Source: Pelagicoccus sp. SDUM812005 (GTDB lineage Bacteria; Verrucomicrobiota; Verrucomicrobiia; Opitutales; Opitutaceae). Taken from it: 64,000 bases of DNA. The stretch lies in NCBI RefSeq assembly GCF_031127875.1, contig NZ_JARXIA010000004.1:62001-126000 (forward strand), in the 5' to 3' direction. Under the pieces are notes generated by a model. The model did not search any database. It saw only the letters and a list, made by a program, of their open reading frames with translations, and was not told the DNA's origin. Below are positions 3,886 through 58,838 of this stretch, one piece after another. Position 1 is the first letter of the stretch. Each line of letters starts with the position of its first letter. The position numbers and the translations under genes were made by a program.

Positions 3886-6800
3886 TTAAAGTTTGATGGT
3901 TACGTTTAGGGACTGCTCTGCCGAAAAGGAAAGTGTCTTGTCTAGCGCGATGAAAACCCGTTCGCCTTCTTGCGTGTATGAGAAGGGAACACTTTTTTTA
4001 TCGAGGCGGACTGTAACTGATTTCGCTTTCCGATTTTTGGATACATCAAAGGCAAGCGACTGAACCTCTAGTTTGCCGTGAACAATGCTTAGGGTTTCGC
4101 TTTGTTCGGAATCGCCCACGTTTTGCGAGAAACTCCCCCATGCTCCTGCGGTTACGAAAGGGGCTTTGAAATTGGAAGGAGTGACCTTTGGCGAAAATGC
4201 GATGTAGTTTCGGGGACCGTGGTATTCGAACCCGGATACGCCTACAAAGTGACCGTAGCTTGCCATGGAGCGAGAGTAGTGGATTCCCCATTCTACTTCT
4301 GACCAAGGGTTTCTTTTTGAGCCATGGTAGCGGTTGTTATGCATGTACCAAATGTGAGCTAGGGACCGGTATGGCATGTCATGCCACATCATCAAGGAGG
4401 AGAGTGCGTATTCGTAGCCATTTTGTGACTCGTTGTTATATGCGGCAAAACGCGGATCCCCGTGCTCGAGCACTTCCGAGCCTCCGTTTGGCCAGGTACA
4501 TGCGATAAATCCTCCTTCGCCCGGCATGGCGTACCAACGTCCGCTTTCATGAACTTCTCGAAAGGGCCCGACGTCGGTAGTGAAGTTGTATTTCCAGAGT
4601 GAGTCGAGAGCTGCCGTTGCTTTCTTAGGGTCGATGATCTCTCCCATGCCGACATGGTAGGCCCAGCTTTGCCCGAGGAGTTGGCTGTATTCGTTTCCTG
4701 AGAACACACCGGGTGAGTTCGGGTGATCTGGGTCCGGCTCGTGAATGAAATACTCGCCATTGAAGAGTTCGTTTTCGATGTAGTCTCGGCCTCTGTCGGC
4801 AATTTCGCGGCAGAAAGAAGCGTATTCGCGGTCTCCCATTTCGTCGGCCATTTCGGCCATGGCCCGTAGCGAAGCTCCGTAGTAGAGGCTGAGCCAAGTG
4901 ATCTTTCCGTACCACTTTGCGTCGAGTGTGTTGTGTTGCGGCCCAGTTAGGATGCCGTCGTGGTCGGCGTCGTTGAGTTGGGTCAAGCCTTGCATCGCCT
5001 TTTTGAGCCCGCCGTAGTTGGCTATCAGGAAGCTGTTGTCTTTGGACATTTGGTGGGCGAGGTAACTGCGAAAAATAATGCCCGCTTGCCCGTCGACTGC
5101 GAGGCCATGTTTAAACCATCGGTACTTGATCGTTCCGTCTTCCTGGAGGGCGCCGCCTTGGGAGACTGGGAGCAGGTCCGTTTTTTCGCGGAGGTTAATC
5201 TCAAGCTCCGGGAAGAGACGCCCCATTGCCTGTACGTAGCTCCAAACGTGCGTACAGGTGCCTTCCCCTTGGTACCCTCCTTCGAACCCGTAGAAGTGGC
5301 GTCCTTCCAAAAGGTGTGAGGTGCTGCTTGCGAGGATCGATGTGTTTAAGAACGTGCGGTCGAGAAACCAGTAGGGCAGGGTCGAATCGTACCACGTGTC
5401 CCTCCAGAGATTCGTTTTGGTTGAAAGCTCTTCGTAGTTGTCGATTACATACTGTGAAACCTCTCTCGCATCCTTGAATTTTTCCGCGTAGTGACGCGTT
5501 TGTCCAGCTATGTCGAGAACGGCGGTCGTGGGGAAGTGCCAGCTCAGCACGAATGTGATTTCTTTCTCTTGGCCTGGCTCAAGCTGGATAGAGCTCGTGA
5601 GGCTCCCGATGAGTTGAGCGTCGGACGCGAGGTCTACCTTAGCTTCGCTTTGGGGCGAAGATTGAGGCGACTTTGCAGGGAGGGCTGCTTGAGCGTCGCC
5701 TTGTGCTTTGCCTCCAATAACGGTGAGGGCCATGCTGCCGTTGTCTCCGACCCGCGTGCGGTCTTCGCCTCTATCGGTAAATGTTATGTCATCGACTGAG
5801 ATGTAGGTCCCCCAAGTGTTTGAAAGCTTGTCGTAAATCTCTATATGAGCTTCCTTCCCTTGGTAGGCTCTCAAGTCGAGCCAGACGGGTTTTAGCGATG
5901 AGGTGGAGGATCCTCCCGCTGCATCGACGGTTTTGCCATCAACGACGGCCCGGATGCCAACGCTTTGAGGATCGGTGTACCCTCCCGTATTTGCTCGAAT
6001 GTACTTACGTTCAACGAGGAAGGGCTGGGAGACGAGGGATCCTGTTGGTTCGCCTTGTTTTAGCTCAGGGCCTTCTCCATCGTACCGACGGGAGTCTGCA
6101 AGGCGTTCACCGCCTAGATGGCGGATGTAGCTGTCCCAATAATTGTAATACGGCTTGCCCTCGTGCCCAAACGCTCGGCCTGAGCGCGTCCAACCCGCGT
6201 AGCCGTCTTCAAAATCTTCGAAAAGGATGTCGGGGCGAGGCGAATCGTCTTCGACACTTTGCTCGATTTCTGCGTAGCTGACCAGTCGAGTGGCTACTTT
6301 ATCCAAATTTTCGATACGATTTACGAGTTTTCCTGAGATTGGATTCTTGGAGCGTTTACGAGATTCAGTGAGCACTGCGTTTTCAAGCCAGCCAGCCAGT
6401 TCGACCTCGGTTGGATGGGAAGAGCGGTTGTGGATCTTGAAATTGAGTATGGTGGCTGGAAGCATCGACTGATCAAGATTCAGCGGGACAAAGGGCGAGT
6501 AGGCTTGCAGGTCGACATCGACTGGAAGCTCTGGATCGCGGTATCGAACTTCCCCGATTGGGTATTGCCCAAGGAACTCGATGTGTTCGATTCCGTTGCG
6601 ATCAAGGATCCTGCTGACGGTTTTTCCGCCACCTCGTGTTTGAACGCGAAAGCCATGCTCGACCATGCGAGCGCCCTTCTCGTTCGGTTTACTGCGGACG
6701 TAGGGGAACTCATAGGCTTCTTCCCCTTTTAATTGCCCCATCTTAAAGTTGAGATTGAATATGTCCCAGAACCAGAGTTTGCCGTCGCCCCCGAGGTAGA

Positions 6801-45639: not shown

Positions 45640-46356
45640 TCAGTAGCTCCATTCCCGGTGGCTGACGGGGATCCGGTTCAACACTTTGCGGTGCTCTCTC
45701 CACTGCGGGACGAAGAGGTTCATCAGGGACTTGAAGCGCTCGTTGTGGGTTGGCTCGAGCAGGTGAACGATTTCGTGGGCGACGATGTAATCGAGGCATT
45801 CCTTCGGCTTCTTAGCGAGCTCGAGGTTCACGATGATTTTATCGTTCTGCGGGATGCACGAGCCCCACTTCGTTTTCATCTTGCGGACCTGCCAATCGGA
45901 TACCTTAGCGCCGATCACGGTTTCCCATTTGAATATGACGGCGGGCAACGCTTCCAATAGCTGCTGGCGGTACCATTCTTCCATGATTTGCCGACGCTTG
46001 CTCTCGCTCGCTCCGGGACGTGTCGTTAAGACGATTTTACGGTGCTTGAGTTCTACCTTTGGCTTGGCCTCTTCTTCAGCAAGCGAGAGCAGGTAGCGCC
46101 TCCCCCAGAGGTAATGGCTTTCGCGTTCGAGAAACTCTCGTTTGGGCTCCCGTTTCTGGGCAAGCTGTTTGCGCTGCTGCCTTCGGATCCAGGGGAGCTT
46201 GTTCGCCGCAAAGGCACGGATCGTTTCCAGATTCATCTCCTCCGGAGCCGCGATGCGGACTCGTCCTGTTGGCGGGTAGACGGAGAGGTGCACGTTCTTG
46301 ATTCGTTTGCGAACCAAGTCCACCGAAAGGTCTTTCAGCTTCAACTGCTCGACCAT
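45640..46356 (-). CDS. YgjP/SprT-type metallopeptidase (DUF45)
   Basis: 238 residues. The zinc motif H-E-I-V-H lies in LDYIVAHEIVHLLEPTHNER, followed by FKSLM, and preceded by VRKMKTKWGSCIPQNDKIIV, the strong signature of YgjP-like (M48-type) peptidases. Such genes are frequent companions of type I restriction systems; their role there is not settled. Its ATG overlaps the hsdR stop by one base (TGATG), so it is translationally coupled to hsdR and is the last gene of the cassette. Confidence 0.9.
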   Translation of the reverse strand: MVEQLKLKDLSVDLVRKRIKNVHLSVYPPTGRVRIAAPEEMNLETIRAFAANKLPWIRRQQRKQLAQKREPKREFLERESHYLWGRRYLLSLAEEEAKPKVELKHRKIVLTTRPGASESKRRQIMEEWYRQQLLEALPAVIFKWETVIGAKVSDWQVRKMKTKWGSCIPQNDKIIVNLELAKKPKECLDYIVAHEIVHLLEPTHNERFKSLMNLFVPQWREHRKVLNRIPVSHREWSY

Positions 46357-49300
46357 CAGTATTCGCTTTGCTGCTTCAGGATCGGGAAGATCTTTTCGAC
46401 TTCGCCTTCGTCCTGCAGGATCGCGAAGAGGGCGGCTTTGATTGTCCGCTCTTTCGCTTCATGCCCTCGCCAGCCATGCGGACTAACTTGCTTGATCGTC
46501 TTGTCGATGGCTACTGCCAGATCGGCCGTCGGATCGTTCGAGTCCGCTCCTGCGTACCGGCCTGCGGCTTCCGCTGCTGCGTCCGATTGAAGATTGTTGT
46601 AGATCGCTCGTTGCCCGGCGGTTTTGACCGTCGATGGGGTCGAGTCGTCCGCGCCGCGTCCAACATCCTTGGCGAGATCCGCGATGCGGCGCAGGTACTC
46701 TTCGTACTCGATTGCTCGTCGTCTGCGAGCGGCGATGATTTCGTCGAGCAGGGCGGACATGCGCTCGTAGTACGCGGGATCGTTCAGGTGCTCGCGAATG
46801 ATGGTGCTGCGAACGTTGTTCTCTATCGTTTCGGCAACCGACTCCGGATTGTTCCGCATCTCTTTGGGCAAGCTTTCTACCGCTTCGTCGATGCCGGACG
46901 AAACGATGAGATCGACCAGCGGCGTTTCGTCGAAGGAAGAAATTTTCCGGGACTCGTTGGCCTCGATGTAGGTGTCGATCAAATGCCGCATGTCGGCCTC
47001 GTAGGCTTTCAGGTCGATCGTCTCTCCGCTGGCGCGACGGATGATTTCTCGCAGCTTCAGGTAGCGGTCGATCTCGCCCTTGATGCGATCCGCCTCTCCC
47101 TCATTGAAGCCGGCAGCGTCCAGCTCATCCGATACGCTGGCGAAGGCTCGCACGAGGGACGCCACGCTGCGGTAAAGAGCGACCCGTCGCGGCTCTCTTT
47201 CTTCGAGGTCGGAGGCGATCTCCGTATTGCCACAAAAATACTGGATATGCTCCAACTCGCCGCGCGGACTTCTGACCGGCTCGCACAGGGCGGCGAGCGA
47301 TTCCAGGGCGTCTTCAAGCCGTTGGCGTCCGCGCTCCAGTCGATCTTGCAAGAGGATCTCGGAGTTCCCTTCGGTGCACTCGTCCTTGTCGAGTTCGGAG
47401 GTGTAGACTTGGAGGGCTCCCGTCTGCTGGTCGTTGACCAGGTTTTGGAAGAGGTCCTTGTAGTCGACGATGTATCCAAAATCCTTGTCCTCTCCGTCGA
47501 GGCGGTTCGTGCGGCAGATCGCCTGGAAAAGTCCGTGGTCTCGCATCGACTTATCGATGTAAAGGTAGGTGCAGCTTGGCGCGTCGAAGCCGGTCAGCAA
47601 CTTGTCTACCACGATGAGCAGCTTCATGCGTGCGGGCTCCTCCACGAATAATTGCTTGGATCGGTCCTCGTAGGCTTCCGTCTTGGTTTTGCTGCCTTGC
47701 GGCTTCACGTCCTTCAGGAGCTTTTGGTAAAGGTGGTAGATGAACTCCTTTTCCGTTTTCGTGTTCTCTCCGGTATCCTCTTGGTTGATGTCGCTGACCT
47801 GAGGATTGTAGGAGGTGATGACGGCGCACTTCCCCTTGAATGGGGTGTGCTGGAAGCGCTCGAAGTATTTGCACGCTTCGTGGATGCTAGAGGCCACCAG
47901 GATCGCGTTTCCGCGTTGGTTGCTTAGGCGAGGCTTCACGTTGAAGTCGAAGATGATATCGCTCACCACGCGGTCCATGCGGGACCGGGAGCTTAGTACC
48001 TTCTGCTTGGTTCCCCATTGCTCGCGCAGGGCGGCGCGCTGCCAATCGTTCAGGCCGCGCGTTTTCGCGTCGAACCAAGCGTCCACCTTTTCGGGCGACC
48101 CAAGGCGTTGGTCAATGTCTCGAGCCTCGTATACCAGGTCCAGAACCACCTCGTCCTCGACGGCTTCTCCGAAGCGATAAGTGTGTATGTACCGTTCGAA
48201 TACTTCCAGCGTAGTCTGCTTGTCGCGACGGAGCAGGGGAGTCCCGGTAAATCCGATGAAGATCGCTTGCGGGATGAGGGCTTTCATCGTCCGGTGCAGC
48301 TTTCCGCTTTGCGTACGGTGGCACTCGTCCACGAATACGTACAGCTCGCCCACCGCGGCGCTGGGTTGCGACTCCAGTTCCCGAATGAAGCGGTCAAAGT
48401 CGTCCACCCCCTTTTTACCGAACTTGTGGACCAGCGAGCAGAGCAGACGAGGCTTCGCTTGCGAAAGCTGGCTCATCAGGTCGCGGCCACTTCGGGTTCG
48501 GTGAATCTTTTCGCCGGAGCTGGAGAAAACGCCTTCGATCTGCTTGTCGAGTTCGTCGCGGTCGGTGACCACTACGACGCGCGCTTCCGGATTGTTTTCC
48601 AGGATCCACTTGGCGAGCAGCACCATGACGATGCTCTTTCCGCTGCCTTGCGTGTGCCAGATGATGCCGCCTTGCTTCAGGGCGATGCGCTCCTGGGCAG
48701 CTTTGATTCCAAAGTACTGGTGATGCCGCGGGACCTTCTTGATTCCGCCATCGAAGAGCACGAAGTCGTACACGATTTCCAAGAAACGTTTCTTGTCGCA
48801 GAGCTTCAGCAGGTACTTGTCCAGCTTGAGGCGAGCATTGTCCTCCTCGTCTTCCTTCCATTTCAGGTAATACTTCTCCGGCGTCCCGATTGTCCCGTAG
48901 CGCAGCCCCTCCGAGTCGTTGCCCGCCATCACTAGCTGCTGGGTAGCGAAAAAGTCCCCGATAAACTCCGGTTTCTGGTTGTTGATGTTCTGCCGTATCC
49001 CGTCGCCGATCGACTTGCGGCTGTTTTTCAGTTCCAGCACGCCGAGTGCGATCCCGTTTACGTAGAGGACTACATCCGGTCGCTTCTCGTGCTGGCCATG
49101 CACGGTCACTTCCTCGGCGATGCCGAAGTCGTTGGCCTCGGGGGATTCCCAGTTGATAAGCTGAATGCTCTCCGTGTTTTCGCCAGCTTCAGCCTTTACC
49201 GGTACTCCGTAGCGCAGGAGTGAATACACGGCCTTGTTGTTTTCGTAGAGCGTGCGGCTGCGATTGCTCGCTTCGACCTTTAGCGAGTGGATGGCCCGGC

Positions 49301-49475
49301 TGATCTGATCGTTTCGATAGCCCGCCTTGTACAGATAGTCGCCCAGAACTGCCTCCTCGACGTTGCTGTTGCCAGTTCGATCCTGCCAATGGCCGAGGTA
49401 GCGATATTTCAGTTCGTCGACGAACAAGGCGACGACTCGATTCTGGGTAACGCGTTCCGCTTGGCCGATTGTCAT
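46356..49475 (-). CDS. hsdR: Type I restriction enzyme R subunit (HsdR)
   Basis: 1039 residues from ATG 49475 (MTIGQAERVTQNRVVALFVD), the usual HsdR beginning; the frame open upstream to 49616 is not similar. The PD-(D/E)xK nuclease is at D134 and E148-L-K150 (KRPDVVLYVNG, GVLELKNSRKS). SF2 motor motifs: Walker A TQGSGKS (275-281), Walker B DECH (383-386), GFTGTPL, and a second RecA lobe with LIVVDKLLTGFDAPSCTYLY and AICRTNRL. The C-terminal helical part binds HsdM. It translocates DNA and cuts unmodified DNA at a distance. It is separated from hsdS by seven other genes, which is uncommon. Confidence 0.96.
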   Translation of the reverse strand: MTIGQAERVTQNRVVALFVDELKYRYLGHWQDRTGNSNVEEAVLGDYLYKAGYRNDQISRAIHSLKVEASNRSRTLYENNKAVYSLLRYGVPVKAEAGENTESIQLINWESPEANDFGIAEEVTVHGQHEKRPDVVLYVNGIALGVLELKNSRKSIGDGIRQNINNQKPEFIGDFFATQQLVMAGNDSEGLRYGTIGTPEKYYLKWKEDEEDNARLKLDKYLLKLCDKKRFLEIVYDFVLFDGGIKKVPRHHQYFGIKAAQERIALKQGGIIWHTQGSGKSIVMVLLAKWILENNPEARVVVVTDRDELDKQIEGVFSSSGEKIHRTRSGRDLMSQLSQAKPRLLCSLVHKFGKKGVDDFDRFIRELESQPSAAVGELYVFVDECHRTQSGKLHRTMKALIPQAIFIGFTGTPLLRRDKQTTLEVFERYIHTYRFGEAVEDEVVLDLVYEARDIDQRLGSPEKVDAWFDAKTRGLNDWQRAALREQWGTKQKVLSSRSRMDRVVSDIIFDFNVKPRLSNQRGNAILVASSIHEACKYFERFQHTPFKGKCAVITSYNPQVSDINQEDTGENTKTEKEFIYHLYQKLLKDVKPQGSKTKTEAYEDRSKQLFVEEPARMKLLIVVDKLLTGFDAPSCTYLYIDKSMRDHGLFQAICRTNRLDGEDKDFGYIVDYKDLFQNLVNDQQTGALQVYTSELDKDECTEGNSEILLQDRLERGRQRLEDALESLAALCEPVRSPRGELEHIQYFCGNTEIASDLEEREPRRVALYRSVASLVRAFASVSDELDAAGFNEGEADRIKGEIDRYLKLREIIRRASGETIDLKAYEADMRHLIDTYIEANESRKISSFDETPLVDLIVSSGIDEAVESLPKEMRNNPESVAETIENNVRSTIIREHLNDPAYYERMSALLDEIIAARRRRAIEYEEYLRRIADLAKDVGRGADDSTPSTVKTAGQRAIYNNLQSDAAAEAAGRYAGADSNDPTADLAVAIDKTIKQVSPHGWRGHEAKERTIKAALFAILQDEGEVEKIFPILKQQSEY

Positions 49476-49525
49476 GAGGAGAGGGGAGGAGGATTCAAGA
49501 GTTGGAGGGATTGGATACTGCAGTT

Positions 49526-50659
49526 CTAGTCGCGTTGCTTGAAAAGCTTTAGGTAAGGTTCGAAAAGGAAAAGCCGTCCACGCTTGGCCCCGGTCATCTC
49601 CCGCAACAGTCCGCAATCGACGAAGCGCTCTATCAGCTTGTAAGCGGTGGGTTGAGACACTTCAGTCGCTTTGGACACGATCTGTGCATTGACCCAAATA
49701 TTTGTGAATAGGAACTGGAAGAGAGCCAAGCCCGAGGCTGCTTGAGGCTTCCAAGAGGAAATTTCAGCTTCCCAGTGGGTTTTGAACTTCAGGATCTGGC
49801 TGAAGGTCTCCACGCCTCTCGCCGCTGTTTCGCTGAGGCCATCGAGGAAAAAATGAAGCCAGTCATCGATCGCATTTTCGCTTCGCACGCGAGTCAGGCG
49901 CTCGTAGTACTCTTCCCGATTTCGCTCCAGATAGTCCGAGAGATAGAGCACCGGCTTCTTCAAGATGCCTTGGGAAACGAGATAGAGAGGCACCATCAAG
50001 CGCCCGATACGTCCGTTGCCGTCAAGGAACGGGTGAATCGTTTCGAATTGGTAATGCATGATCGCCACCTTCAATAGAGGCGGGAGGTGAAGCTCTCCGT
50101 TGTGGGCAAACAAGTCCAGGTCCCCCATCAACTCAGGCACATTTTCTTGAATCGGAGGAACGAAGCGGGCGTTCCCCGGGTTGGATCCGCCGATCCAATT
50201 TTGGCTACGACGAAATTCGCCCGGTGTCTTGTGCTCGCCTCTTACCCCGGACATCAGAGTCGCGTGGGCTCTCTTCAGCAAACGAGTGGAGAAAGGCAAT
50301 TCAGCTAAGGCTGAAATGGCATCGTCCATGGCGGAGATGTAGTTATTTACTTCGCGCCAGTCGTCTCGCCGCTCTTCGAGAATTTCTTCCTCGGGCAGTA
50401 ACGCCTCCTCCATTTCCGTCTGCGTATCCTCGATGCGGCTAGACTCTGTCGCTTCCTTCGCTACGTGCATGCGAACGAACAGGTCGAGGTTTGGAACGTA
50501 TTCCGAAAACATGTCCAGGCGGCCCAGATTCCGGTCCGCGCGACTCAGCGCTTCGAGAACGCGGGGTTCGTCGATCCGCCACGGCCGATTGATGGGGCTT
50601 GGTTCGAAACTACGAAAGCCGGTCTGCATCAACCATTTGCCTGCTTCAAAATCACGCAT
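49526..50659 (-). CDS. Fic-domain AMP-transferase
   Basis: 377 residues. The catalytic motif HPFLDGNGRIGR starts at H209. An N-terminal inhibitory helix is present (TESSRIED, residues 71-78), the (S/T)xxxE(G/N) motif with E77 as the inhibitory Glu and D instead of G/N in last place: a class II Fic protein. The C-terminal third (about 290-377) is a winged helix (NAQIVSKATEVSQPTAYKLI), typical of Fic/DUF4172-free 'Fic-wHTH' proteins. It would adenylylate a protein target and may sense DNA through its wHTH. It lies 50 bp upstream of hsdR on the same strand, with elaborate AT-rich palindromes upstream. Confidence 0.93.
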   Translation of the reverse strand: MRDFEAGKWLMQTGFRSFEPSPINRPWRIDEPRVLEALSRADRNLGRLDMFSEYVPNLDLFVRMHVAKEATESSRIEDTQTEMEEALLPEEEILEERRDDWREVNNYISAMDDAISALAELPFSTRLLKRAHATLMSGVRGEHKTPGEFRRSQNWIGGSNPGNARFVPPIQENVPELMGDLDLFAHNGELHLPPLLKVAIMHYQFETIHPFLDGNGRIGRLMVPLYLVSQGILKKPVLYLSDYLERNREEYYERLTRVRSENAIDDWLHFFLDGLSETAARGVETFSQILKFKTHWEAEISSWKPQAASGLALFQFLFTNIWVNAQIVSKATEVSQPTAYKLIERFVDCGLLREMTGAKRGRLFLFEPYLKLFKQRD

Positions 50660-50673
50660 TTTTTTCTTCTACC

Positions 50674-50764
50674 GAACTTTTTTTAATTAAGAAAGGGTCT
50701 TATTTAAAAAAATGCCCGTTTTTTTAATTAAGACCTCTCGCTAATTAAATTTCGAAACCTACGG
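50674..50764. promoter_or_regulatory. AT-rich palindromic element A upstream of fic
   Basis: The 15-mer TTTTTTTAATTAAGA occurs at 50678-50692 and 50719-50733, and its inverted form begins at 50697, so 50697-50734 is a 16 bp inverted repeat (15/16 pairs) with the 6 nt loop TGCCCG. CGCTAATTAAATTTC follows at 50739-50753. The element starts 15 bp before the fic start and probably is its operator or promoter. It is repeated at 50993-51058. Confidence 0.6.
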
Positions 50765-50887
50765 GAAGGAACGACCAATCTGACGGTTGAACTGTTTTGG
50801 AGAAGATCTCGACCCCTTCGTTCGGAATGAATCACATTAAGTGGCTGAGATACAAAGGGTAGACTCGAGTGTGGGTGACTCGTTTTG

Positions 50888-50971
50888 TGGGAAAAACGAC
50901 CCCTTTTTCCCATAAAGCAAGGACCGTCCTGGGAGCGTCCAATTGCGGCATGGACCAGCGTCCAATTGCGG
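50888..50971. repeat. Hairpin and 23 bp tandem repeat between the AT-rich elements
   Basis: TGGGAAAAA (50888-50896) and TTTTTCCCA (50904-50912) form a perfect nine-pair stem. Then AGCGTCCAATTGCGG occurs twice, at 50934-50948 and 50957-50971 (23 bp period). The 50660-51059 gap carries no gene. Confidence 0.6.
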
Positions 50972-50992
50972 ATTCGGGCCAGGCATTGTCCC

Positions 50993-51058
50993 GCTTATTT
51001 AAATTTTGAGCCTATTTTTTAAATAAGGCCTGCCGCTAATTAAATTTCCGAAACTACG
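50993..51058. repeat. AT-rich palindromic element B after the DUF6155 gene
   Basis: CTTATTTAAA (50994-51003) and TTTAAATAAG (51018-51027) are perfect inverted arms; CGCTAATTAAATTTC follows at 51034-51048 exactly as in element A (50739-50753), then CGAAAC-TACG in both. The two elements are about 296 bp apart in the same orientation. Confidence 0.65.
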
Positions 51059-51059
51059 A

Positions 51060-51632
51060 TTATTCGTTACCGAAATCACTAGCCAACTGCGAGACTACGT
51101 CGGAAACGTAGTCGTGGAAGCCCCAGCCGATTCCGTCGGTTTCTCGTTCGACTGTGGCCAATCGCTTGCTGAACTTGCGGTAAAGCGGCACTCCTTCTTC
51201 GCGAAGCAGGTCGGCTAGTTCGTCTAGGGCCGACTCGATGCTGGAGTAAAACCGTTCGTCGATATCGCCGTATTCGTTGGTGAACGCCACGCCGTTCTCC
51301 ACGTAGGTCATTAGAAGCTCGGCGGTGCCGGGAAGATCGCCGGTCGCTCGGCGGTATTGGCGGATGGCCTTGCGAGCCTCGCCCAGCTTCAGCTTGGCCT
51401 CGCCGCGCTTGGGATAGAAGGGTTCGATGGCCTTTTGCCGATAGGATTCGAATGCGGCTTCGCCGCCGCACGAAGCCAAGCAACGGACGTGGAGAAAGTC
51501 CTTGTTCGAGGCGCTCGTTTGGTAGAGATCTTTGACTAGATCGAGAAGGGCCGTCTTCTCCAGTTGGGAAAGCTGTTTGCGGACGGCGCTCCAGCTCGGT
51601 TTGTTCGCTGAGGTTTTCGTGTTGCTCGGCAT
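51060..51632 (-). CDS. DUF6155-like protein
   Basis: 190 residues from ATG 51632 (MPSNTKTSANKPSWSAVRKQ); the upstream open frame overlaps the previous gene and has no sense. The segment VRKQLSQLEKTALLDLVKDL followed by a helical repeat of charged residues and a KRGEAKLKLGEARKAIRQYR stretch resembles DUF6155 proteins found beside defence and mobile genes. Function is unknown. All-helical, cytoplasmic, no catalytic motif visible. It starts 8 bp after the preceding gene, in the same operon. Confidence 0.7.
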   Translation of the reverse strand: MPSNTKTSANKPSWSAVRKQLSQLEKTALLDLVKDLYQTSASNKDFLHVRCLASCGGEAAFESYRQKAIEPFYPKRGEAKLKLGEARKAIRQYRRATGDLPGTAELLMTYVENGVAFTNEYGDIDERFYSSIESALDELADLLREEGVPLYRKFSKRLATVERETDGIGWGFHDYVSDVVSQLASDFGNE

Positions 51633-51640
51633 GGCGACGG

Positions 51641-51970
51641 TCAGGATCGTTTGCTCGCTTTGAAGGCGCTGCGGTCGCCTAGGTGGAACGCGAAATTGCC
51701 GAGCAAGTGCTCTCCCTCGAGCTTGACGCTCCCGCGACCGCAAACCGGAGTACCCTCGTCGCCGCCTTCGAAGCTGAAATGGAGTATCTCCTGCGGGCTC
51801 CAGGCATCCGGCTCGCAGTCGATTTCCGTCTCCACGCAGCCAAAGCGGAAGCGTCCCATTCCATCGGGATGGATCTCGATCTTAGCTGTCTCCACCATGT
51901 GAAGAAAGTCAGCATCCCATTCGCTGGTTTCGTCGATGGTCCAGTTTCCGACAAATTTCTTGGGTATCAT
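51641..51970 (-). CDS. Small hypothetical protein, beta-rich
   Basis: 109 residues (MIPKKFVGNWTIDETSEWDA). The pattern FVGNWTI...IEIHPDGMGRFRFG...HFSFEGGDEGTPVCGRGSVK...GNFAFHLGD resembles a small lipocalin- or calycin-like beta-barrel with GNW near the start. No named family. Same strand and spacing as the operon around it. Function unknown. Confidence 0.65.
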   Translation of the reverse strand: MIPKKFVGNWTIDETSEWDADFLHMVETAKIEIHPDGMGRFRFGCVETEIDCEPDAWSPQEILHFSFEGGDEGTPVCGRGSVKLEGEHLLGNFAFHLGDRSAFKASKRS

Positions 51971-52011
51971 AGCAGTAGTGGAATTCTCCGGGGGCTTTGG
52001 TTGAAAGATTT

Positions 52012-52042
52012 TTTAACCACAGATTTCACAGAGGACACAGAT
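52012..52042. repeat. 'AACCACAGATT' dispersed repeat fragment
   Basis: TTTAACCACAGATTTCACAG followed by AGGACACAGATT lies between two cassette genes. A similar ACCACAGATTxCACAGAT sequence is known as a widely dispersed intergenic repeat in Verrucomicrobiota, Planctomycetota and other genomes. This is an inference from memory. Confidence 0.55.
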
Positions 52043-52056
52043 TGAGAGAATGGAGA

Positions 52057-52611
52057 TTAGAGTTTAGCCTGTTTTCGGTACGGAAGCGGAATCAGATTTT
52101 TGGGGAGATAGAGCGGATGCTCCGGCATGCCGTCTTTCGTGAGTCTGAGGTACGATACAGAAGGATGATCGGCCAGAAGAGATTCAACCTCCTTGCTGCG
52201 ACGGCGAAGACGTTTCGGAGGCAGGCCGTAGGCCAGAACCACGGTCTCCGCCTGGTTTGCCATCTCCAAAATTGCTTCATCATTGGCGGGGCCAACGGGA
52301 TCATCGACTTTCAACAGCTCCTTCTTGTCCGTTGCTCGATACGCGTGCACGTTACCTACCAACTGACCTCCATAGCCCCAGTCGCGACTGAACGTACCTG
52401 TCCTCTTGAGAGTTGGATCGCTATAGTCCAAGCAAGCAACGCTCGGGTTCATCAATATCCAAAGCACAATCGGTTTGCCTGCGTCCCAGACCTCTCGGAG
52501 TTGATAGCGGTAGCACTGGCAATCGGAAAACACCGCCGTCACCTTCGAATCCGAAGGCCAAGGCGGGCGAGATTTACCACCTGGATCATGCACTGAATCT
52601 GCCACCTGCAT
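52057..52611 (-). CDS. DUF1643 domain protein
   Basis: 184 residues. The DUF1643 features are clear: TAVFSDCQCYRYQLREVWDA, then IVLWILMNPSVACLDYSDPT, LKRTGTFSRDWGYGG, VGNVHAYRATDKKEL and VVLAYGLPPKRL. The fold is thought to resemble nucleotide- or base-processing enzymes, with no proven activity; such proteins occur often in phages and defence islands. It begins 8 bp after the previous gene, in the operon with the CBASS-type genes. Confidence 0.88.
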   Translation of the reverse strand: MQVADSVHDPGGKSRPPWPSDSKVTAVFSDCQCYRYQLREVWDAGKPIVLWILMNPSVACLDYSDPTLKRTGTFSRDWGYGGQLVGNVHAYRATDKKELLKVDDPVGPANDEAILEMANQAETVVLAYGLPPKRLRRRSKEVESLLADHPSVSYLRLTKDGMPEHPLYLPKNLIPLPYRKQAKL

Positions 52612-52619
52612 TCGAATTC

Positions 52620-53513
52620 TTAAGATTGCGATATCTGATTTGGTCCTGTTGGCATTCCGGGCTTACCTCGCATTTCGGGATCGTGCTCCCAGAGTTTCTC
52701 GATAACACTCCAGCCAAGTTTTGTGGCATGGAGACCATAGCTGTCGATGCTTCGAGCACTTTCAGAAGTGTAGTGCGTCCAAAATAGCCGCCGCTCGAGG
52801 AGTTCACGAAGTGCCTGATGAAACGCTACTCGTCCGCCTTCTCCCATAAACTCGTTGTAAGTTCCTATAACCTTTTCTCTGTAGATCGAAGGTTGAGAGT
52901 CGCCTTGTATCCAATTTTTCCACAGCCTTCCATAGAAATTCAACAGTAGGATGGCTTCAGGTGTGAGCTGGCTAGAGACCAACCTTATGTAGCGGTCAGC
53001 CTCTTCTTCGAAACACTTCGCAGCAGTCACCAGAGCAGTTGCAGCCTTCTCCACGAGATTGTCTTCATTGTACCTATTCACATTGGTAACCTTGAGGTCA
53101 AAATGGAGAGAAGCCGTATCGTCTTGAGTGAAGAGAATTACACGTTTGTTTGGCTTCAGTGCCAGGGCGATTCCGGTCTCAATTACAACGCCAAAGTTGC
53201 AACCCGTAAGGTCTCCTACGAAAAAGTGGCAGTTGAGGATATCGGCAGCGATTTGGTCCGTAATAGTGATTGCTCCACCGGGTCCTCCGTCTACTCGCTT
53301 GAGAGGTGCAAATCGCCTGCCATTGCCATCATCAGGTAGCAAATCGTTGGCTCGATCGTGTACCTTCTCCAGCAGTAGCGACCTTATCCTGGATTCGGGA
53401 TAACCACCTCGGTTGCTGAAAGGCATCGCAACGAAGGTTGTGTACGTGTCCGAAGAAAATTGCTCGGCGAAAGCGTCATCTCTTTGAAGCTGGTAGATTT
53501 GATCAACATTCAT
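52620..53513 (-). CDS. TIR/nucleoside-deoxyribosyltransferase-like protein with C-terminal winged helix
   Basis: 297 residues. The first 150 residues have the order of a TIR-like or nucleoside 2-deoxyribosyltransferase fold: TTFVAMPFSNRGGYPESRIR, then ITDQIAADILNCHFFVGDLT, and GVVIETGIALALKPNKRVIL, with the Glu of V-I-E-T in the catalytic position of both superfamilies. Proteins of this group are NAD- or nucleotide-cleaving effectors in defence. Residues about 190-297 are helical and contain a wHTH-like piece (FHQALRELLERRLFWTHYTS). It follows the SLATT gene (76 bp) and may be a second effector of the CD-NTase module. It could also be an uncharacterised nucleotide-binding protein. Confidence 0.62.
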   Translation of the reverse strand: MNVDQIYQLQRDDAFAEQFSSDTYTTFVAMPFSNRGGYPESRIRSLLLEKVHDRANDLLPDDGNGRRFAPLKRVDGGPGGAITITDQIAADILNCHFFVGDLTGCNFGVVIETGIALALKPNKRVILFTQDDTASLHFDLKVTNVNRYNEDNLVEKAATALVTAAKCFEEEADRYIRLVSSQLTPEAILLLNFYGRLWKNWIQGDSQPSIYREKVIGTYNEFMGEGGRVAFHQALRELLERRLFWTHYTSESARSIDSYGLHATKLGWSVIEKLWEHDPEMRGKPGMPTGPNQISQS

Positions 53514-53589
53514 GTGCTTTGGACTTGTGCCTTATGGGAGCATCGAATTCGGGCAGGACAGTTCGATAGATCTAGGCTTAGAAGAGGTT

Positions 53590-54183
53590 CTATTTGTCTT
53601 CACCCCTTTTGAGTTCTCGCGGTAGAAAAGCATCCACTTCGTCGTCTGAGAATGTAAGGTCTTCCAATTTCTGAAGCGCCTCCTGGGCTTTCTTGTAGGC
53701 TTCGTAATTCGTACTAGGAGCTCCAGAGTACAAAGAATGGAGTTCGTTCAAGAGGTCGTCTCTGCGTTCGAGATAGGAATCAATTTTATTTCCGTCCATC
53801 CGGATGTCGGTCAAAAGAGACAAATACCTCTCTCTAATTAACCAAAGGTCTGCTGCGGCCTGCCGATGCTTCTGAGCAAGCTCTCCAAGGTCGAAATCCT
53901 TCGTATAGGAATTGAGAACAAGCAGCGTAGTTGAAACAAGGGTACCAACAATCGCAGCCCAATTCCCTGAACCAAGCAGAGTTGAAATAAATCCGCCGGT
54001 TGCAAGCGCGGACAAGATGAGCTGAGACAGCTTGATTTTGCCTAGGCGAGAAAGCAATAGGTCTGCGCACTTCTCGTGAGTCTTGTGCGAATACACGACC
54101 CGACCAAAGCACTCGCGAATCTGACCTTCGAGAGTCGTTAGCTGATCCGGAGTTCGGGCTTTATTCTGGGAATTTAGTTCCAT
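53590..54183 (-). CDS. SLATT-domain 2TM effector
   Basis: 197 residues. Two membrane helices near residues 52-70 and 75-95 (LSQLILSALATGGFISTLLG and NWAAIVGTLVSTTLLVLNSY), flanked by amphipathic helices, with a long helical C-terminus (KHRQAAADLWLIRERYLSLL). This is the layout of SLATT domains, the SMODS- and SLOG-associated two-TM effectors predicted to make membrane pores when activated by a cyclic oligonucleotide. It lies 100 bp downstream of the CD-NTase gene on the same strand, matching the standard CBASS cyclase-effector pair. Confidence 0.85.
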   Translation of the reverse strand: MELNSQNKARTPDQLTTLEGQIRECFGRVVYSHKTHEKCADLLLSRLGKIKLSQLILSALATGGFISTLLGSGNWAAIVGTLVSTTLLVLNSYTKDFDLGELAQKHRQAAADLWLIRERYLSLLTDIRMDGNKIDSYLERRDDLLNELHSLYSGAPSTNYEAYKKAQEALQKLEDLTFSDDEVDAFLPRELKRGEDK

Positions 54184-54283
54184 AAATTTTCCTCCAATCC
54201 TGCTTTGCCGACCATTCTCTTTTGGGGCTAGATGTTTCGTGTTCGATTGCTGACTCCGCTATATTGAAACACTGAGTCGCTTT

Positions 54284-55042
54284 TTACTGAAAGTTGCCTT
54301 TTTTGTACACATATTGACCACTGCCTGGTGCCTTCCAATAGGACTTCTCCTTATCCTGATTCGCTAGATAGCGAAAAAAGTCACGCGACATGTAGTCATA
54401 GTACAAATACGATTTGTCTCGATACTCCCAATTTTCGATAAACTGGTAAGCCAGCGTATCGATGAGGAGACCTCCCATGGGAATATCCCACTCTCTTTTC
54501 CAAGCTCTTGCCATTCGGCAAAGCCATATAAGATTTCCATTGCAGACTGAGTTGCGATCCCGAATGGCCTTGATCTCTGGCCTAGGGTTTGTGGTCTTCC
54601 AAGTTCCACCTCGGTTGCTATCAGGAAAAGTGTAGCTGTCGGATTTGTTGTAGAAAACAGGCAATACTTCGAACGTTATGCCGTCAGTGAAGCTTACGAC
54701 GACGACTTGCCCATCGCCATCAATACTAGAGGAAGAGTATGTCTTCTGCATCGAGTTTCGGACTGATTGCAGGAGAGCAGACTGTCCATTTCCTGTGTAA
54801 GCGTCGTACTGAAAGTAGAGTTCGGCTGGTAACTCGAAGACCATATCCAAATCGCTAAACCCAGTGATTGCTGTGTTTCGTCCATACGAACCCACATACA
54901 AGCTGTGAGACGTCTCCGAGGTCGTGTTCCAGAAATCAGCATTCAGTCGCCGAGTGATTGCTTTGTATCGATTCGCGATAGTACCTCCGTCCTTAACTCG
55001 GAGGTTATCGCAAAAGGAGCTGAACCACTCGCCTAGCCCCAT
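54284..55042 (-). CDS. CD-NTase (SMODS-type cyclic-oligonucleotide synthase)
   Basis: 252 residues. The nucleotidyltransferase motif GSYGRNTAITGFSDLDMVFE gives G51-S52 and D64-x-D66; the third acidic residue is E125 in ITFEVLPVF. Then PDSNRGGTWKTTNPRPEIKA, and a helical C-terminal half. These are the CD-NTase/SMODS features: in CBASS it makes a cyclic di- or trinucleotide after phage infection. Without Cap2/Cap3 or HORMA/TRIP13 genes nearby this would be a type I CBASS. Its ATG at 55042 lies 10 bp inside the end of hsdS, so its translation should depend on that of hsdS, an unusual coupling. Confidence 0.87.
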   Translation of the reverse strand: MGLGEWFSSFCDNLRVKDGGTIANRYKAITRRLNADFWNTTSETSHSLYVGSYGRNTAITGFSDLDMVFELPAELYFQYDAYTGNGQSALLQSVRNSMQKTYSSSSIDGDGQVVVVSFTDGITFEVLPVFYNKSDSYTFPDSNRGGTWKTTNPRPEIKAIRDRNSVCNGNLIWLCRMARAWKREWDIPMGGLLIDTLAYQFIENWEYRDKSYLYYDYMSRDFFRYLANQDKEKSYWKAPGSGQYVYKKGNFQ

Positions 55043-56286
55043 ACCAGTCGGGTTTTGCCGGTTAGGAGTTCTTGCATCATGCCTTGCTTGAGTTGGCGGG
55101 CTTTGGAGAGCTTGGCTTCGAGGGCGGCGATTTCCTCGTCCATGTCGCTGAGCGTTTCGGCGATGGCGGTTTGCTCATCTACTGTCGGAGGAACAAGAAG
55201 CTCCATCGACGCATATTCATTTCCGTTGATTCCGGGTTGACCGCTCCTCATCGAATTTACCCGAACCCAATCCCAGTACTGTTCAGTTTGGGTGAAAAAG
55301 AGCAGAAACTTAGACGAAAGCTTCTTAGGATCCACCTTAGCTCGAATTAGGAATCCAGCAAAGACCACGACACCGTCTTCAGGTTTGTAGAGGTATGTCT
55401 TTCCAACGCTAGCTCCCGTTCTCGCAAAGACGATCTCATCTGAACCCAATACATAATCGAGGGCTAGAGGGTGAGACACGCCGACTCTACCGTTCTCGAT
55501 GAATCTTCCATCGTCGTCGATGTCCGTAATTCTTAGATACACCGGAATGTCTCGCTCCAAAGGAACGCCTGCTGCGTTGATTCCATAGTCAGGATTCGCA
55601 AGCAGACATTTGCGAAGCTGTACCTCTTTCCACTCCCCGGTGAAGCCGGGGAGACGTTTTTGGCCGGTGAGGAGTTGCTGCATGGCGCCTTGTTTGATTT
55701 GGCGTTTTTTGGCGATGAGGTGCTCCAGGGATTCAATGAGGGCATCCGCATCGCTTAAGGCCTCGGCGATGGCTTCTTGTTCGGCTTTGGTGGGCGGGAG
55801 CGGAATCGCGAAGCTCTTAACGGTCGCTATCGAAAACTCCAACCTTGTTGTTCCAACGGTTGCACTAGCAATCCGCGACTGAGTTGATGCACTCTCGAGC
55901 TGTTGAGCTACGTATTGCGGAGAGTTCGTCGAATCGATGCGCAATCGTGCTAGCTCACGGCTGATGTTGCCATTGAAACCTTCAGGAACCACACCGACTC
56001 GACCAATCGTACCTTTGATCGATATCAGAACATCTCCTGCGCTAACTCGGCTTCTTTGGTAGGGCTTTTCGAGAAAAGGCTCAGTTTTATGAAGATTCGC
56101 GCAACCGATCTCTTTCACATACTTGATGGCTACGATCGGTACACCTCCGTCTACATTTCTGCCAACTTGAACAACGCCGTAGCAGATCGGAGAGTCGCTC
56201 TTCACCAATTCCACCAAAGGCTTGAAAGACCAATCTTCCGGAATCTCTCCAACCTCCGTTTGCTTGTATCCATTTTTCACTGCCAT
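55033..56286 (-). CDS. hsdS: Type I restriction-modification specificity subunit (HsdS)
   Basis: 417 residues from ATG 56286 (MAVKNGYKQTEVGEIPEDWS), the usual HsdS opening; the longer frame is antisense-like within hsdM. Two target-recognition domains are separated by conserved coiled regions: LPPTKAEQEAIAEALSDADA with ALIESLEHLIAKKRQIKQGA and MQQLLTGQKRLPGF, then the second VPPTVDEQTAIAETLSDMDE with KLSKARQLKQGMMQELLTGK. It determines the bipartite DNA target. It overlaps hsdM by 10 bp and the CD-NTase gene by 10 bp, so the three are tightly coupled. Confidence 0.94.
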   Translation of the reverse strand: MAVKNGYKQTEVGEIPEDWSFKPLVELVKSDSPICYGVVQVGRNVDGGVPIVAIKYVKEIGCANLHKTEPFLEKPYQRSRVSAGDVLISIKGTIGRVGVVPEGFNGNISRELARLRIDSTNSPQYVAQQLESASTQSRIASATVGTTRLEFSIATVKSFAIPLPPTKAEQEAIAEALSDADALIESLEHLIAKKRQIKQGAMQQLLTGQKRLPGFTGEWKEVQLRKCLLANPDYGINAAGVPLERDIPVYLRITDIDDDGRFIENGRVGVSHPLALDYVLGSDEIVFARTGASVGKTYLYKPEDGVVVFAGFLIRAKVDPKKLSSKFLLFFTQTEQYWDWVRVNSMRSGQPGINGNEYASMELLVPPTVDEQTAIAETLSDMDEEIAALEAKLSKARQLKQGMMQELLTGKTRLVWG

Positions 56287-58838
56287 GCGAAGCCCATCCT
56301 TTCTAGGTGCTGGCTGACTTTGGACTCTAGGTTGGTGACGCGGGTGGTGAGTTCGGGCAACGGTTGGGCGTAGCGTTCGGCGAGGTCTTTGACGCGTTGG
56401 GTGAGGCTTTGGCTGATACGGTCGGTTTCGCCGTGGATGGCGGTCGCGAGCGCGGCGAGCCACTTGTCGTCGACGACGAGCGTTTTGATGTCGTCGGGGG
56501 TGAGCTTGGGGTAGTGGGCGAGGGCGAGAGCATCAAGTTCGGACTCGGCTTGCTTGATTTGCTTTTTGAGGGCGGTTTCTTCTTCGGAGGATTCGAGATA
56601 GGCGAGTAAGGCGTTGGCTTCGTCGGTGGGGGTGTCGGAGCCGTAGGTGGCGGGGGACTCGGCGGCTGCTAGTAGATCGGGTTGTTGCGGCGGCCTCGGC
56701 GATGCCGCCCTACCTTTTATGCCTAACTCTTTGAGTCGGGCGGTGACAGCGGCTTTGTTGACCTTGTCCATTTCCGAGAAGGCTCCGTCGTCGCCGCTGT
56801 GCTCTTCTTCGAGTTCGGCGAGGCGGGCGGTGGCGGCTTCGAGCTGGGACTGGAGGGCGTCGAGCTCGGCTTGCTCGGCGGCGAAATAGCGGGCGACGAT
56901 GAGGGGCTTGGGCACCAGCTCGCAGGTCCAGCCTTTGTCTACGGTTTGGCCCTTCTTTTTGCCTTTTGTAATTTCCTCGAGGATACGCTCGGGCTTGGCA
57001 ATCCAGCCGTCTTGCGTGATGAGGTAGCAATCGTCTTGCATGGTCTCTTCCCAGAAGTCCATGAGGTGCTGGTACACGTCGTAGCGATCGATGAGTGGCG
57101 ACTCGGCGTAGTGCTCGAGCAGGTCTTCCGAGAGCTCGTGGATGAGCGCCTTGGGATGAAAGCCGGGATCGAGCTGCTTGAGCTGAGCGGAAGCTTTCGT
57201 TCGCCAGGCGTCGAAGTGTTTTTCGAGGGAGGCGATGAAGGATGCGAATTCCTTGTGGGATTGGATGGTGGGTTTGATTTGGTCGGGAGCGACGGTGAGG
57301 TCGGAGTAGGCGCGTTGCGGCTGTCTCGGCGAGACAGCCCTACCTTTGAAAAGTGAGCTTTTCAGGCTGGGGCAGACTTGCCAGTAGCGGTCGAGGGCGT
57401 CGATGTCGCGTTGGGGGATGCCGCCGCGGAGGTGGGCCTCGATGTCCTGGATGTCCTCCTTGGCTTGGCTGTCGATGTAGCGCGGGAGGTTGAGGTTGAA
57501 GTCGTTTTTCTCGATCTCCTCGAAAGGGACCTCGCGGGCGTAGCCCGGCAGCGCGATCCGTTTCTTGAATACGTCCACGATCTTGTGGATATCCATGCTG
57601 CGGAGGCGGTTTTTGTTGCCGTCCTTCATGAAGCCGGAGGAGGCGTCGATCATGAAGATGGGACGGCGCTCCTGGGCCTGCTCCTTGTCGAGCACGATGA
57701 TGCAGGCGGGAATGCCGGTGCCGTAGAAGAGGTTGGCCGGGAGTCCGATGATGCCGGCGAGGATGCCACGCTTGACCAGCTCCTTGCGAATCGCGGCTTC
57801 GGCATTGCCGCGGAAGAGCACGCCGTGCGGGAGGATGCAAGCGCCCTTGGCGGTGGACTTCATGGAGCGCACGATGTGCAGGAGGTAGGCGTAGTCGCCC
57901 TGCTTGGCGGGCGGGACGCCGAAGCCGTCGAAGCGATGGAAGTTGCGCGAGGCTTGGTCGACGCTGTCGCTGTCGGCCGGCACGCCGATCTCGTCGGGAT
58001 GGAGGCCGCTGGTCCAGCGCTTGTCGCTGAAGGGAGGATTGGCGACCACGAAGTCGAAGGTCTGCAGGGCGTCGCCCTGGAGGAACTTGGGATTGGCGAG
58101 GGTATTGCCCGGACGCACGGTGGCGGTTGGCCGGTCGTGCAGGATCATGTTCATGCGGGCCAGCTGGGCGGTGGTGGAATCCTTTTCCTGTCCGTAGATG
58201 GTTATGTCGGAATCCGCCTCGCCCGCGACCTTGAGCAGCAAGGAGCCCGAGCCGCAAGTCGGGTCATAGACCGTGGTGGCGTTGGTCGTCTGGGCTTCGT
58301 GGATACCGAGGATGGCGGCCATGACACGGCTGACTTCGGCGGGGGTGTAGAACTGGCCCTTGGACTTGCCGCTCTCGGTAGCGAAGTGCCGCATGAGGTA
58401 CTCGTAGGCGTCGCCCAGGATGTCGTCGCCTTCGGCCCGGTTCTTGGAGAAATCGAGCTCCTTCTTCTGAAAGATGGAGATGAGGTTGGTGAGGCGGTCG
58501 ACGATCTCCTTGCCCGAGCCCAGCTTGTTGGCGTCGTTGAAGTCCGGGAAGTCCGCTTGGGAAAGCTGCTCGTTGGCGGCGGCCAGGGGGGCGATGATGC
58601 GCTTGTTGATCTGGTCGCCGATGTCGGTCTTGCCCTTGAGCTTGACCATGTCGGCGAAGCTGGAGCCGTCCGGGATGACGATGGGAGCGTACGGCTGTCC
58701 GGCGTACTTGTCGGAGATGTATTTCAGGAAGAGCAGCACCAGCACGTAGTCCTTGTACTGGGAGGCGTCCATGCCGCCGCGCAGCTCGTCGCAGCTCTGC
58801 CAAAGGGAGGAGTAAAGTTCGGATTTCTTAAGGGCCAT
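56277..58838 (-). CDS. hsdM: Type I restriction-modification methyltransferase subunit (HsdM)
   Basis: 853 residues, longer than typical HsdM (about 500-550). N-terminal helical part, then the N6-adenine methyltransferase motifs DPTCGSGSLLLKV (192-204, SAM site) and N267-P-P-F270. GQFYTPAEVSRVM (161-173) is the HsdM-specific lead. After the core comes a long C-terminal region with coiled-coil character (AELDALQSQLEAATARLAEL, LKKQIKQAESELDALALAHY). Two palindromic DNA repeats of one family are carried in frame at K498-Q508 (GRAVSPRQPQ) and K708-Q718 (GRAASPRPPQ), in regions outside the catalytic core. First gene of the cassette; the right direct repeat is 218 bp upstream of its start. Confidence 0.95.
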   Translation of the reverse strand: MALKKSELYSSLWQSCDELRGGMDASQYKDYVLVLLFLKYISDKYAGQPYAPIVIPDGSSFADMVKLKGKTDIGDQINKRIIAPLAAANEQLSQADFPDFNDANKLGSGKEIVDRLTNLISIFQKKELDFSKNRAEGDDILGDAYEYLMRHFATESGKSKGQFYTPAEVSRVMAAILGIHEAQTTNATTVYDPTCGSGSLLLKVAGEADSDITIYGQEKDSTTAQLARMNMILHDRPTATVRPGNTLANPKFLQGDALQTFDFVVANPPFSDKRWTSGLHPDEIGVPADSDSVDQASRNFHRFDGFGVPPAKQGDYAYLLHIVRSMKSTAKGACILPHGVLFRGNAEAAIRKELVKRGILAGIIGLPANLFYGTGIPACIIVLDKEQAQERRPIFMIDASSGFMKDGNKNRLRSMDIHKIVDVFKKRIALPGYAREVPFEEIEKNDFNLNLPRYIDSQAKEDIQDIEAHLRGGIPQRDIDALDRYWQVCPSLKSSLFKGRAVSPRQPQRAYSDLTVAPDQIKPTIQSHKEFASFIASLEKHFDAWRTKASAQLKQLDPGFHPKALIHELSEDLLEHYAESPLIDRYDVYQHLMDFWEETMQDDCYLITQDGWIAKPERILEEITKGKKKGQTVDKGWTCELVPKPLIVARYFAAEQAELDALQSQLEAATARLAELEEEHSGDDGAFSEMDKVNKAAVTARLKELGIKGRAASPRPPQQPDLLAAAESPATYGSDTPTDEANALLAYLESSEEETALKKQIKQAESELDALALAHYPKLTPDDIKTLVVDDKWLAALATAIHGETDRISQSLTQRVKDLAERYAQPLPELTTRVTNLESKVSQHLERMGFAWQ
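56683..56717 (-). repeat. In-frame palindromic element in hsdM (copy 2)
   Basis: On the minus strand: GGTAGGG-CGGCA-TCGCCGA-GGCCG-CCGCAAC. The stem pairs CGGC with GCCG. The flanks and the TCGCCGA loop are identical to copy 1 but the stem is different and still pairs. It encodes GRAASPRPPQ. Confidence 0.75.
57313..57347 (-). repeat. In-frame palindromic element in hsdM (copy 1)
   Basis: On the minus strand: GGTAGGG-CTGTC-TCGCCGA-GACAG-CCGCAAC. The stem CTGTC/GACAG is perfect; the palindrome GGCTGTCTC/GAGACAGCC spans 57319-57339. It encodes GRAVSPRQPQ in the same frame as copy 2. Confidence 0.78.

What the first reader, a model, noticed from the sequence alone, without database searches (positions are those of the whole stretch)
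56683..57347. Two palindromic elements inserted in frame in hsdM, with compensatory stem changes
Both copies have identical flanks (GGTAGGG...CCGCAAC) and loop TCGCCGA but different 5 bp stems that still pair (CTGTC/GACAG against CGGC/GCCG). Both are read in the same frame, giving GRAVSPRQPQ and GRAASPRPPQ, in the non-catalytic C-terminal part. This resembles the protein-coding palindromic elements known from Rickettsia (RPE), which to my knowledge are not described for HsdM of this phylum.
Basis: partly seen in the sequence, partly recalled or inferred. Interest (0 to 1): 0.72.

Follow-up and report, generated by a model that had tools for sequence, protein, structure and literature searches.

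The report
Mobile hairpin repeats translated inside HsdM
Two copies of a small mobile DNA hairpin found across this bacterium's genome sit in frame inside a DNA-methylating enzyme and add short extra loops to it; the kind of repeat is known, but its repeated arrival in the same two loops of this enzyme is a useful new example.

Summary
Two GGTAGGG-hairpin-CCGCAAC elements lie at 57314-57344 and 56684-56714 (minus strand) inside one open hsdM. Both are read in the GRA frame; neither peptide occurs in 77 aligned homologues from other genomes. They are GTAG-tagged REPs (REP/RAYT type) rather than Rickettsia RPEs: at least 95 places in the genome, 62 of REP type, often paired, and a RAYT gene with the same repeats on both sides. 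Intragenic GTAG REPs, most numerous in the verrucomicrobium Opitutus terrae and present in its uvrA genes, were described in 2013, so the kind is known.

Comparison adds detail. A same-genus HsdM (95% identical) lacks the site-1 insert; another carries a different palindrome at site 2. The same genome has in-frame copies in uvrA, an HrpA-like helicase and a U32 peptidase. In 93 HsdMs the site-1 loop has 6-8 residues except in four, and those four hold a palindromic insert: three GTAG REPs and one unrelated repeat in Sideroxydans. A tree forces at least three changes of this trait. Site 2 also holds several kinds of palindrome. AlphaFold2 puts both sites in loops outside the methylase domain. 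Best reading: selfish repeats that survive where an in-frame loop extension is tolerated.

The parts
57314..57344 (-). GTAG-REP copy 1 (site 1): GTAG tag, 9-bp stem GGCTGTCTC/GAGACAGCC, loop GCC; encodes GRAVSPRQPQ (HsdM residues 499-508)
   Evidence: 48.7 bits, E 3.6e-10; the copy was among the 12 used to build the model
56675..56714 (-). GTAG-REP copy 2 (site 2) with tail to GATC; stem GGCGGC-A-TC/GA-G-GCCGCC; encodes GRAASPRPPQQPD (from residue 709)
   Evidence: 49.9 bits, E 1.9e-10; also in the model; tail shared with uvrA copies
56277..58838 (-). hsdM, type I restriction-modification methylase subunit (853 aa), intact ORF carrying both elements
   Evidence: Pfam N6_Mtase + HsdM_N; NCBIfam TIGR00497 hsdM above cut-off; PADLOC MTase_I
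55033..56286 (-). hsdS, specificity subunit, just downstream of hsdM (start at the ATG of MAVKNGYK inferred by me; the listed ORF starts further up)
   Evidence: Pfam Methylase_S; PADLOC Specificity_I
46356..49616 (-). hsdR, type I restriction subunit; all three subunit genes are present
   Evidence: REase_I, 1438 bits

Best explanation
The two elements are members of a GTAG-tagged REP family (hairpin mini-elements presumed to be copied by a RAYT/TnpA-REP tyrosine transposase). They landed in hsdM and were kept because they are read in an open frame and fall in two flexible loops, so HsdM gained about 7 residues at site 1 and a longer stretch at site 2 without losing its frame. They are tolerated selfish insertions, not a designed protein feature; the same loops are reached repeatedly by GTAG REPs and by unrelated palindromic repeats in other bacteria. 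Shown: family identity, copy number, RAYT between REPs, in-frame reading, one same-genus orthologue without insert 1, different palindromes at one site, loop position in a predicted model. Inferred: that the RAYT mobilised these copies, that HsdM still works, and that the inserts are near neutral.
For: A covariance model of the element (built from 12 copies, both hsdM copies among them) finds 95 places in the own genome at E<=1; only 150 of 8695 first-look candidates were scored, so this is a lower bound. 33 of 95 lie inside a longer MITE-like element; 62 are REP type, 36 of these within 150 bp of another and 27 within 150 bp of one in opposite orientation. A strict pattern gives 60 copies, reversed-pattern control 0. 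The model also hits 34 of 56 related genomes besides the own one. The RAYT at L152:3530-4024(-) passes the cut-off for REP-associated tyrosine transposase (85 vs 80 bits) and has REP copies on both sides (C25:3376-3537 and 4025-4128). HsdM of G007 (95% aa identity) lacks insert 1, net 21 nt, in frame; G005 keeps an identical insert 1 and has a different palindrome at site 2. Site-1 loop: 89 of 93 HsdMs have 6-8 residues, 4 have 13-15 and these 4 contain a palindromic insert (elements), whereas hairpins of 9 bp or more occur about once per 4.1 kb in these genes. A tree of 92 rows, built without the loops, needs 4 changes of this trait, at least 3 forced by well-supported branches. The Sideroxydans site-1 palindrome has 67 forward and 66 reverse matches at <=3 mismatches in its own genome (many are one place read on both strands), control 0; the Lysobacteraceae site-2 palindrome is CGTC-tagged with 28 matches at <=2 mismatches, control 0. 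AlphaFold2 (mean pLDDT 83) puts insert 1 in the turn between strands 497-500 and 511-514 and gives residues 712-733 of site 2 pLDDT under 50.
Against: RAYT activity, transposition and HsdM activity were not tested. Around site 1 G007 is also diverged (67.5% identity to G000 in columns 1500-1600, 86.9% in 1400-1500; other windows 86.0-98.9%), so the filled/empty difference may be an allele swap rather than a simple insertion. The site-2 loop has 34 residues against 8 in 67 of 92 HsdMs; the element explains about 13 of the extra ones, the rest is unexplained. Site 2 is a variable linker in general: of 14 loops of 21 or more residues, 8 hold palindromes and 6 do not as far as I can judge by eye from folds (L083, L061, L205, L105, L112, L076). 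A plain count of hairpins of 9 bp or more along the gene shows only a weak excess: 5 at site 1 (one of them, L066, not an insert) against 2, 0, 3, 0, 0 in five synonymous shuffles, and 5 at site 2 against 2, 1, 2, 4, 2. Changes on the tree may be gains or losses; the label is as scattered as in shuffles.
Confidence: 0.88

Rival explanations
1. They are relatives of the Rickettsia palindromic elements (RPE), a separate in-frame palindrome family.
For: Same outward behaviour: palindromes read in frame inside genes, several per genome; PMC3733652 compares the two.
Against: The GTAG tag, the RAYT with the same repeats on both sides and the genome-wide family fit the REP/RAYT kind. The paper places the R. 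conorii intragenic repeats (RPE-4, RPE-6) with CGTC, not GTAG. RPE sequences themselves were not aligned.
Confidence: 0.03
2. The segments are ordinary HsdM protein sequence that happens to form hairpins.
For: Chance hairpins of 9 bp or more occur about once per 4.1 kb in HsdM genes (55 in 225,276 bases).
Against: None of 77 aligned homologues has the peptides; a 95% identical orthologue lacks insert 1; the DNA belongs to a repeat with at least 95 places in the genome.
Confidence: 0.01
3. The inserts are functional in HsdM, for example by tuning assembly or mRNA structure and so the level of restriction, and are kept by selection.
For: Repeated occupation of the same two loops, in-frame maintenance, different stems at one site; insert 1 is identical in G000 and G005, whose genes are 93.1% identical.
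Against: A near-identical orthologue has no insert 1; inserts of unrelated sequence occur at the same sites; both lie in loops of low model confidence. No change in 31 bases has a chance of about 0.11 at 6.9% divergence (my arithmetic).
Confidence: 0.08

Closest known systems
GTAG-tagged REPs and REPtrons (PMC3733652, sections 15-16 and passages read; RAYT/TnpA-REP work PMC8266576, passages read)
   Same: GTAG next to a short palindrome, 20-40 bp, multicopy, dimers, paired stem changes among copies, RAYT gene with the repeats beside it; intragenic copies, in O. terrae among others in uvrA, DNA ligase and RNA helicases; different REPs at about the same place of recB in two Xanthomonas species
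   Different: Host gene is hsdM; the main text of the paper mentions neither hsdM nor restriction. Added here: a same-genus orthologue without the insert, and arrival at the same loops in other phyla
Rickettsia palindromic elements (RPE)
   Same: Palindromes inserted in frame in genes that probably still work (as cited in PMC3733652)
   Different: RPE-4/RPE-6 belong with CGTC repeats in PMC3733652; RPE consensus not aligned here
CGTC-tagged repeats (PMC3733652)
   Same: One sits in frame at HsdM site 2 of a Lysobacteraceae genome (L100; 28 genomic matches)
   Different: Other tag, not associated with transposase genes; not the family in the window

Membership tests
GTAG REP (REP/RAYT) | GTAG tetranucleotide at one end next to a palindrome | tested here: met
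   G-GTAG-GGC... in both copies
GTAG REP (REP/RAYT) | 20-40 bp hairpin with alternative complementary stem bases among copies | tested here: met
   (5 of 9 pairs change on both sides over 12 chosen copies; 33 of 500 shuffles reach this, 0 of 500 reach the covariation score)
GTAG REP (REP/RAYT) | High copy number in the genome, often dimers | tested here: met
   95 places; 62 REP type, 36 within 150 bp of another, 27 of opposite orientation
GTAG REP (REP/RAYT) | RAYT gene with the repeats beside it | tested here: met
   L152:3530-4024(-), NF047646 85 bits vs cut-off 80, REP copies on both sides
GTAG REP (REP/RAYT) | Mainly extragenic | tested here: met
   8 of 95 places lie in ORFs that pass my codon filter, one of them (C35) judged spurious; the filter can miss genes. 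The hsdM copies are exceptions
GTAG REP (REP/RAYT) | Single-strand cleavage or mobilisation by its RAYT | not testable with these tools
   cleavage shown in vitro for other REPtrons (PMC8266576, passages)
Rickettsia RPE | Sequence kinship with an RPE family | not tested
   No RPE sequence was fetched; the GTAG/RAYT evidence places the element elsewhere
Rickettsia RPE | In-frame insertion in a gene | tested here: met
   (function of the gene not tested)

The most novel reading that the evidence does not exclude
Two loops of HsdM, and matching linkers of UvrA, are standing landing pads: palindromic repeats of unrelated families enter, leave and replace each other there more often than in other genes, either because the transposases prefer these DNA-processing genes or because hosts gain from flexible, fast-changing loops in restriction and repair proteins.
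Probability: 0.15. Interest if true: 0.65.

Novelty: new member of a known kind. Interest (0 to 1): 0.42.

Why it matters
It extends intragenic REPs to a restriction-modification enzyme and offers same-genus orthologues with the loop filled and empty, and sites where related species carry different palindromes with the frame kept. That makes the question whether REP-coded peptides are neutral directly testable with natural alleles of one enzyme. It also warns that gain and loss of REPs can create fast-changing indels in conserved proteins.

Tried and rejected
Rfam gave no match in the window at the gathering threshold. A scan for hairpins of 9 bp or more over 95 HsdM genes was too noisy to show the two sites by itself; loop length was the clearer measure. 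I first took LLAAAESPATY after hsdM copy 2 for part of the element because uvrA has LLAAEAPTPY after its copy C; same-genus UvrA proteins without the element keep a similar stretch (G002, G005, G001), so I dropped that, and this part of the long site-2 loop stays unexplained. A degenerate inverted partner downstream of copy 2 was considered, but the fold does not support it (z +0.7). GGTAGGG at 56057 on the plus strand lies in what I read by eye as ordinary hsdS sequence. One search read some loci in the wrong orientation; one search corrected it. G010 has a contig of 5,957,605 bases, which I recall as the size of the O. terrae PB90-1 chromosome; this would make the family Opitutaceae (Verrucomicrobiota). 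No call names the organism. Against that link, the G010 uvrA locus L286 has no hit of my model at E<=0.01, although the paper reports REPs in both O. terrae uvrA genes; they may belong to its other GTAG families, and the second G010 uvrA-like locus (L296) was not searched. RAYT cleavage rules (CT dinucleotide, PMC8266576) were compared by eye with the junctions and did not fit consistently.

Counts and drops: 80 HsdM loci fetched; 77 aligned, 3 dropped for want of an aligned stretch of 700 residues in one frame. 95 rows = window + 77 + 17 of 19 family loci (own copy and a second locus of one contig left out); 2 lack site 1 and 3 lack site 2. The tree has 92 rows, 3 being too short. The structure used 41 sequences. 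In relatives I examined 63 model hits in 40 loci around top-scoring places listed; 5 lie in ORFs that pass my codon filter. The filter uses codon usage of the window's long ORFs. Whether the elements in the helicase, peptidase and epimerase-like genes are absent from homologues was not tested. Copy number of the G005 site-2 palindrome, the L067 hairpin, the L102 palindrome and the L209 hairpin was not tested. PMC3733652 figures and supplements were not seen.

Full report
What is there. hsdM (56277-58838, minus strand, 853 aa) contains two copies of a GGTAGGG-hairpin-CCGCAAC element at 57314-57344 and 56684-56714 (none in 100 shuffles). Both are read in the same frame. The stems are 9 perfect pairs (copy 1) and 8 pairs with one A.G mismatch (copy 2), closing a GCC loop. 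hsdS and hsdR lie in the same island, so all three subunit genes of a type I system are present.

What it is. A strict pattern occurs 60 times in the genome, with 0 matches to the reversed control. A covariance model built from 12 chosen copies, both hsdM copies among them, finds 95 places at E<=1 (150 of 8695 candidates scored, so a lower bound). 33 of these lie inside a longer element with inverted ends; 62 are REP type, 36 of them within 150 bp of another and 27 within 150 bp of one in opposite orientation. The same model hits 34 of 56 related genomes besides the own one. A RAYT gene (NCBIfam REP-associated tyrosine transposase, 85 bits against a cut-off of 80) stands between REP copies. 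These features fit the GTAG-tagged REPs of PMC3733652 (sections 15-16 and passages read). That paper reports intragenic GTAG REPs, most numerous in Opitutus terrae among the genomes it examined, with uvrA, DNA ligase and RNA helicase genes among the targets there.

Other genes in the same genome. Of 95 places, 8 fall in ORFs that pass a codon filter: hsdM (2), a long uvrA (2), an HrpA-like helicase with DUF3418, a U32 peptidase, an epimerase-like gene (named by eye only) and one that I judge spurious. Pfam supports the UvrA, helicase and U32 assignments (the name HrpA is recalled). The uvrA ORF holds two further related copies, seen by eye: one with another stem, one with a broken tag. The frame is GRA in hsdM and uvrA, KVG/EVG in the helicase and the peptidase, antisense in the epimerase-like gene; the remaining sense frame meets the TAG stop of the tag itself.

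Filled and empty sites. HsdM matches at E<=1e-100 in 18 of 252 genomes of the family, the own one included. Two same-genus orthologues are informative. G005 (96% aa) has copy 1 unchanged and, at site 2, another palindrome with a GTGG start; its gene is 12 nt longer and still in frame. G007 (95%) has copy 2 with one change and an empty site 1 (LFKANRANY against LFKGRAVSPRQPQRAY). G007 is also diverged around site 1, so an allele exchange is possible. In uvrA the same holds: at one linker (site C) G000 and G003 have elements with different stems in the same frame, while G002, G005 and G001 have none and G006 has other extra residues. The G003 element there equals hsdM copy 2 over the 34 bases printed.

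Same loops elsewhere. Over 93 HsdMs the site-1 loop has 6-8 residues in 89. The four exceptions hold palindromes: G000, G005, G093 (GTAG REP found by the model, E 4.5e-6) and a Sideroxydans genome whose palindrome has 67 forward and 66 reverse matches in that genome, many being one place read twice. A tree of 92 rows built without the loops needs four changes of this trait, three of them forced by well-supported branches; gains and losses are not told apart. At site 2, 78 of 92 have 8-15 residues and 14 have 21 or more. Of these, 8 hold palindromes (G000, G005, G007, G093, G015, G023, the CGTC repeat of a Lysobacteraceae genome with 28 matches, and a Methylobacter hairpin of untested copy number) and 6 do not, judged by eye. 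A plain hairpin count along the gene shows only a weak excess at the two sites. A Kuenenia HsdM has a 66-nt palindromic insert at a third place. The structure model puts site 1 in a turn between two short strands and site 2 in a stretch of very low confidence between two helices, both outside the methylase domain at 138-462. Solved relatives are HsdM proteins; by sequence their matches end by residue 472, so the loop positions rest on the prediction.

How it most likely works. REP hairpins spread (mobilisation by the RAYT is inferred from the family; cleavage by other RAYTs is in PMC8266576, passages). Insertions in genes that break the frame or the fold are presumably lost. Those that keep the frame and fall in loops that bear 7 or more extra residues remain, and can later be exchanged for another palindrome. 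I found nothing that requires a function of the added peptides, and did not test for one.

Known and new. The kind is known; the main text of the 2013 paper mentions neither hsdM nor restriction, and no held paper combines hsdM with 'palindromic element' (other wordings were not tried with hsdM). New here, as far as these searches go, are the HsdM case, the same-genus filled and empty alleles, and occupation of the same loops by unrelated palindromes.

Noticed in passing
window 46356-55042 (-): Defence island inside the type I locus: hsdR, SoFic, a CBASS cyclase (54284-55042) and a 2TM effector (53590-54183), next to two ORFs without a PADLOC match (52057-53513).
   Followed up: partly
own genome, e.g. 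L009 and L027: 33 of 95 places enclose the GTAG hairpin in a longer MITE-like element, roughly 95 nt by eye (ends TTTTTCGTTTGATCATT ... AAACGAAAAA); a REP-like hairpin inside a second mobile element.
   Followed up: partly
L102 (Kuenenia HsdM) after the position of window residue 578: A 66-nt palindromic in-frame insert (22 aa; -77.5 kcal/mol with flanks) in HsdM.
   Followed up: no
L209 (G023 HsdM), site 2: A long in-frame hairpin (-68.7 kcal/mol with flanks) of another kind.
   Followed up: no
L192 about 2783-2890: The HrpA-like helicase also carries a 33-bp tandem repeat coding ALRSSSSEGGT three times, then a partial copy.
   Followed up: no
L272 (G003 uvrA region): A further in-frame GTAG REP towards the end of the G003 ORF (GRARRPGEPQQADH); the matching end of the G000 ORF was not read.
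   Followed up: no
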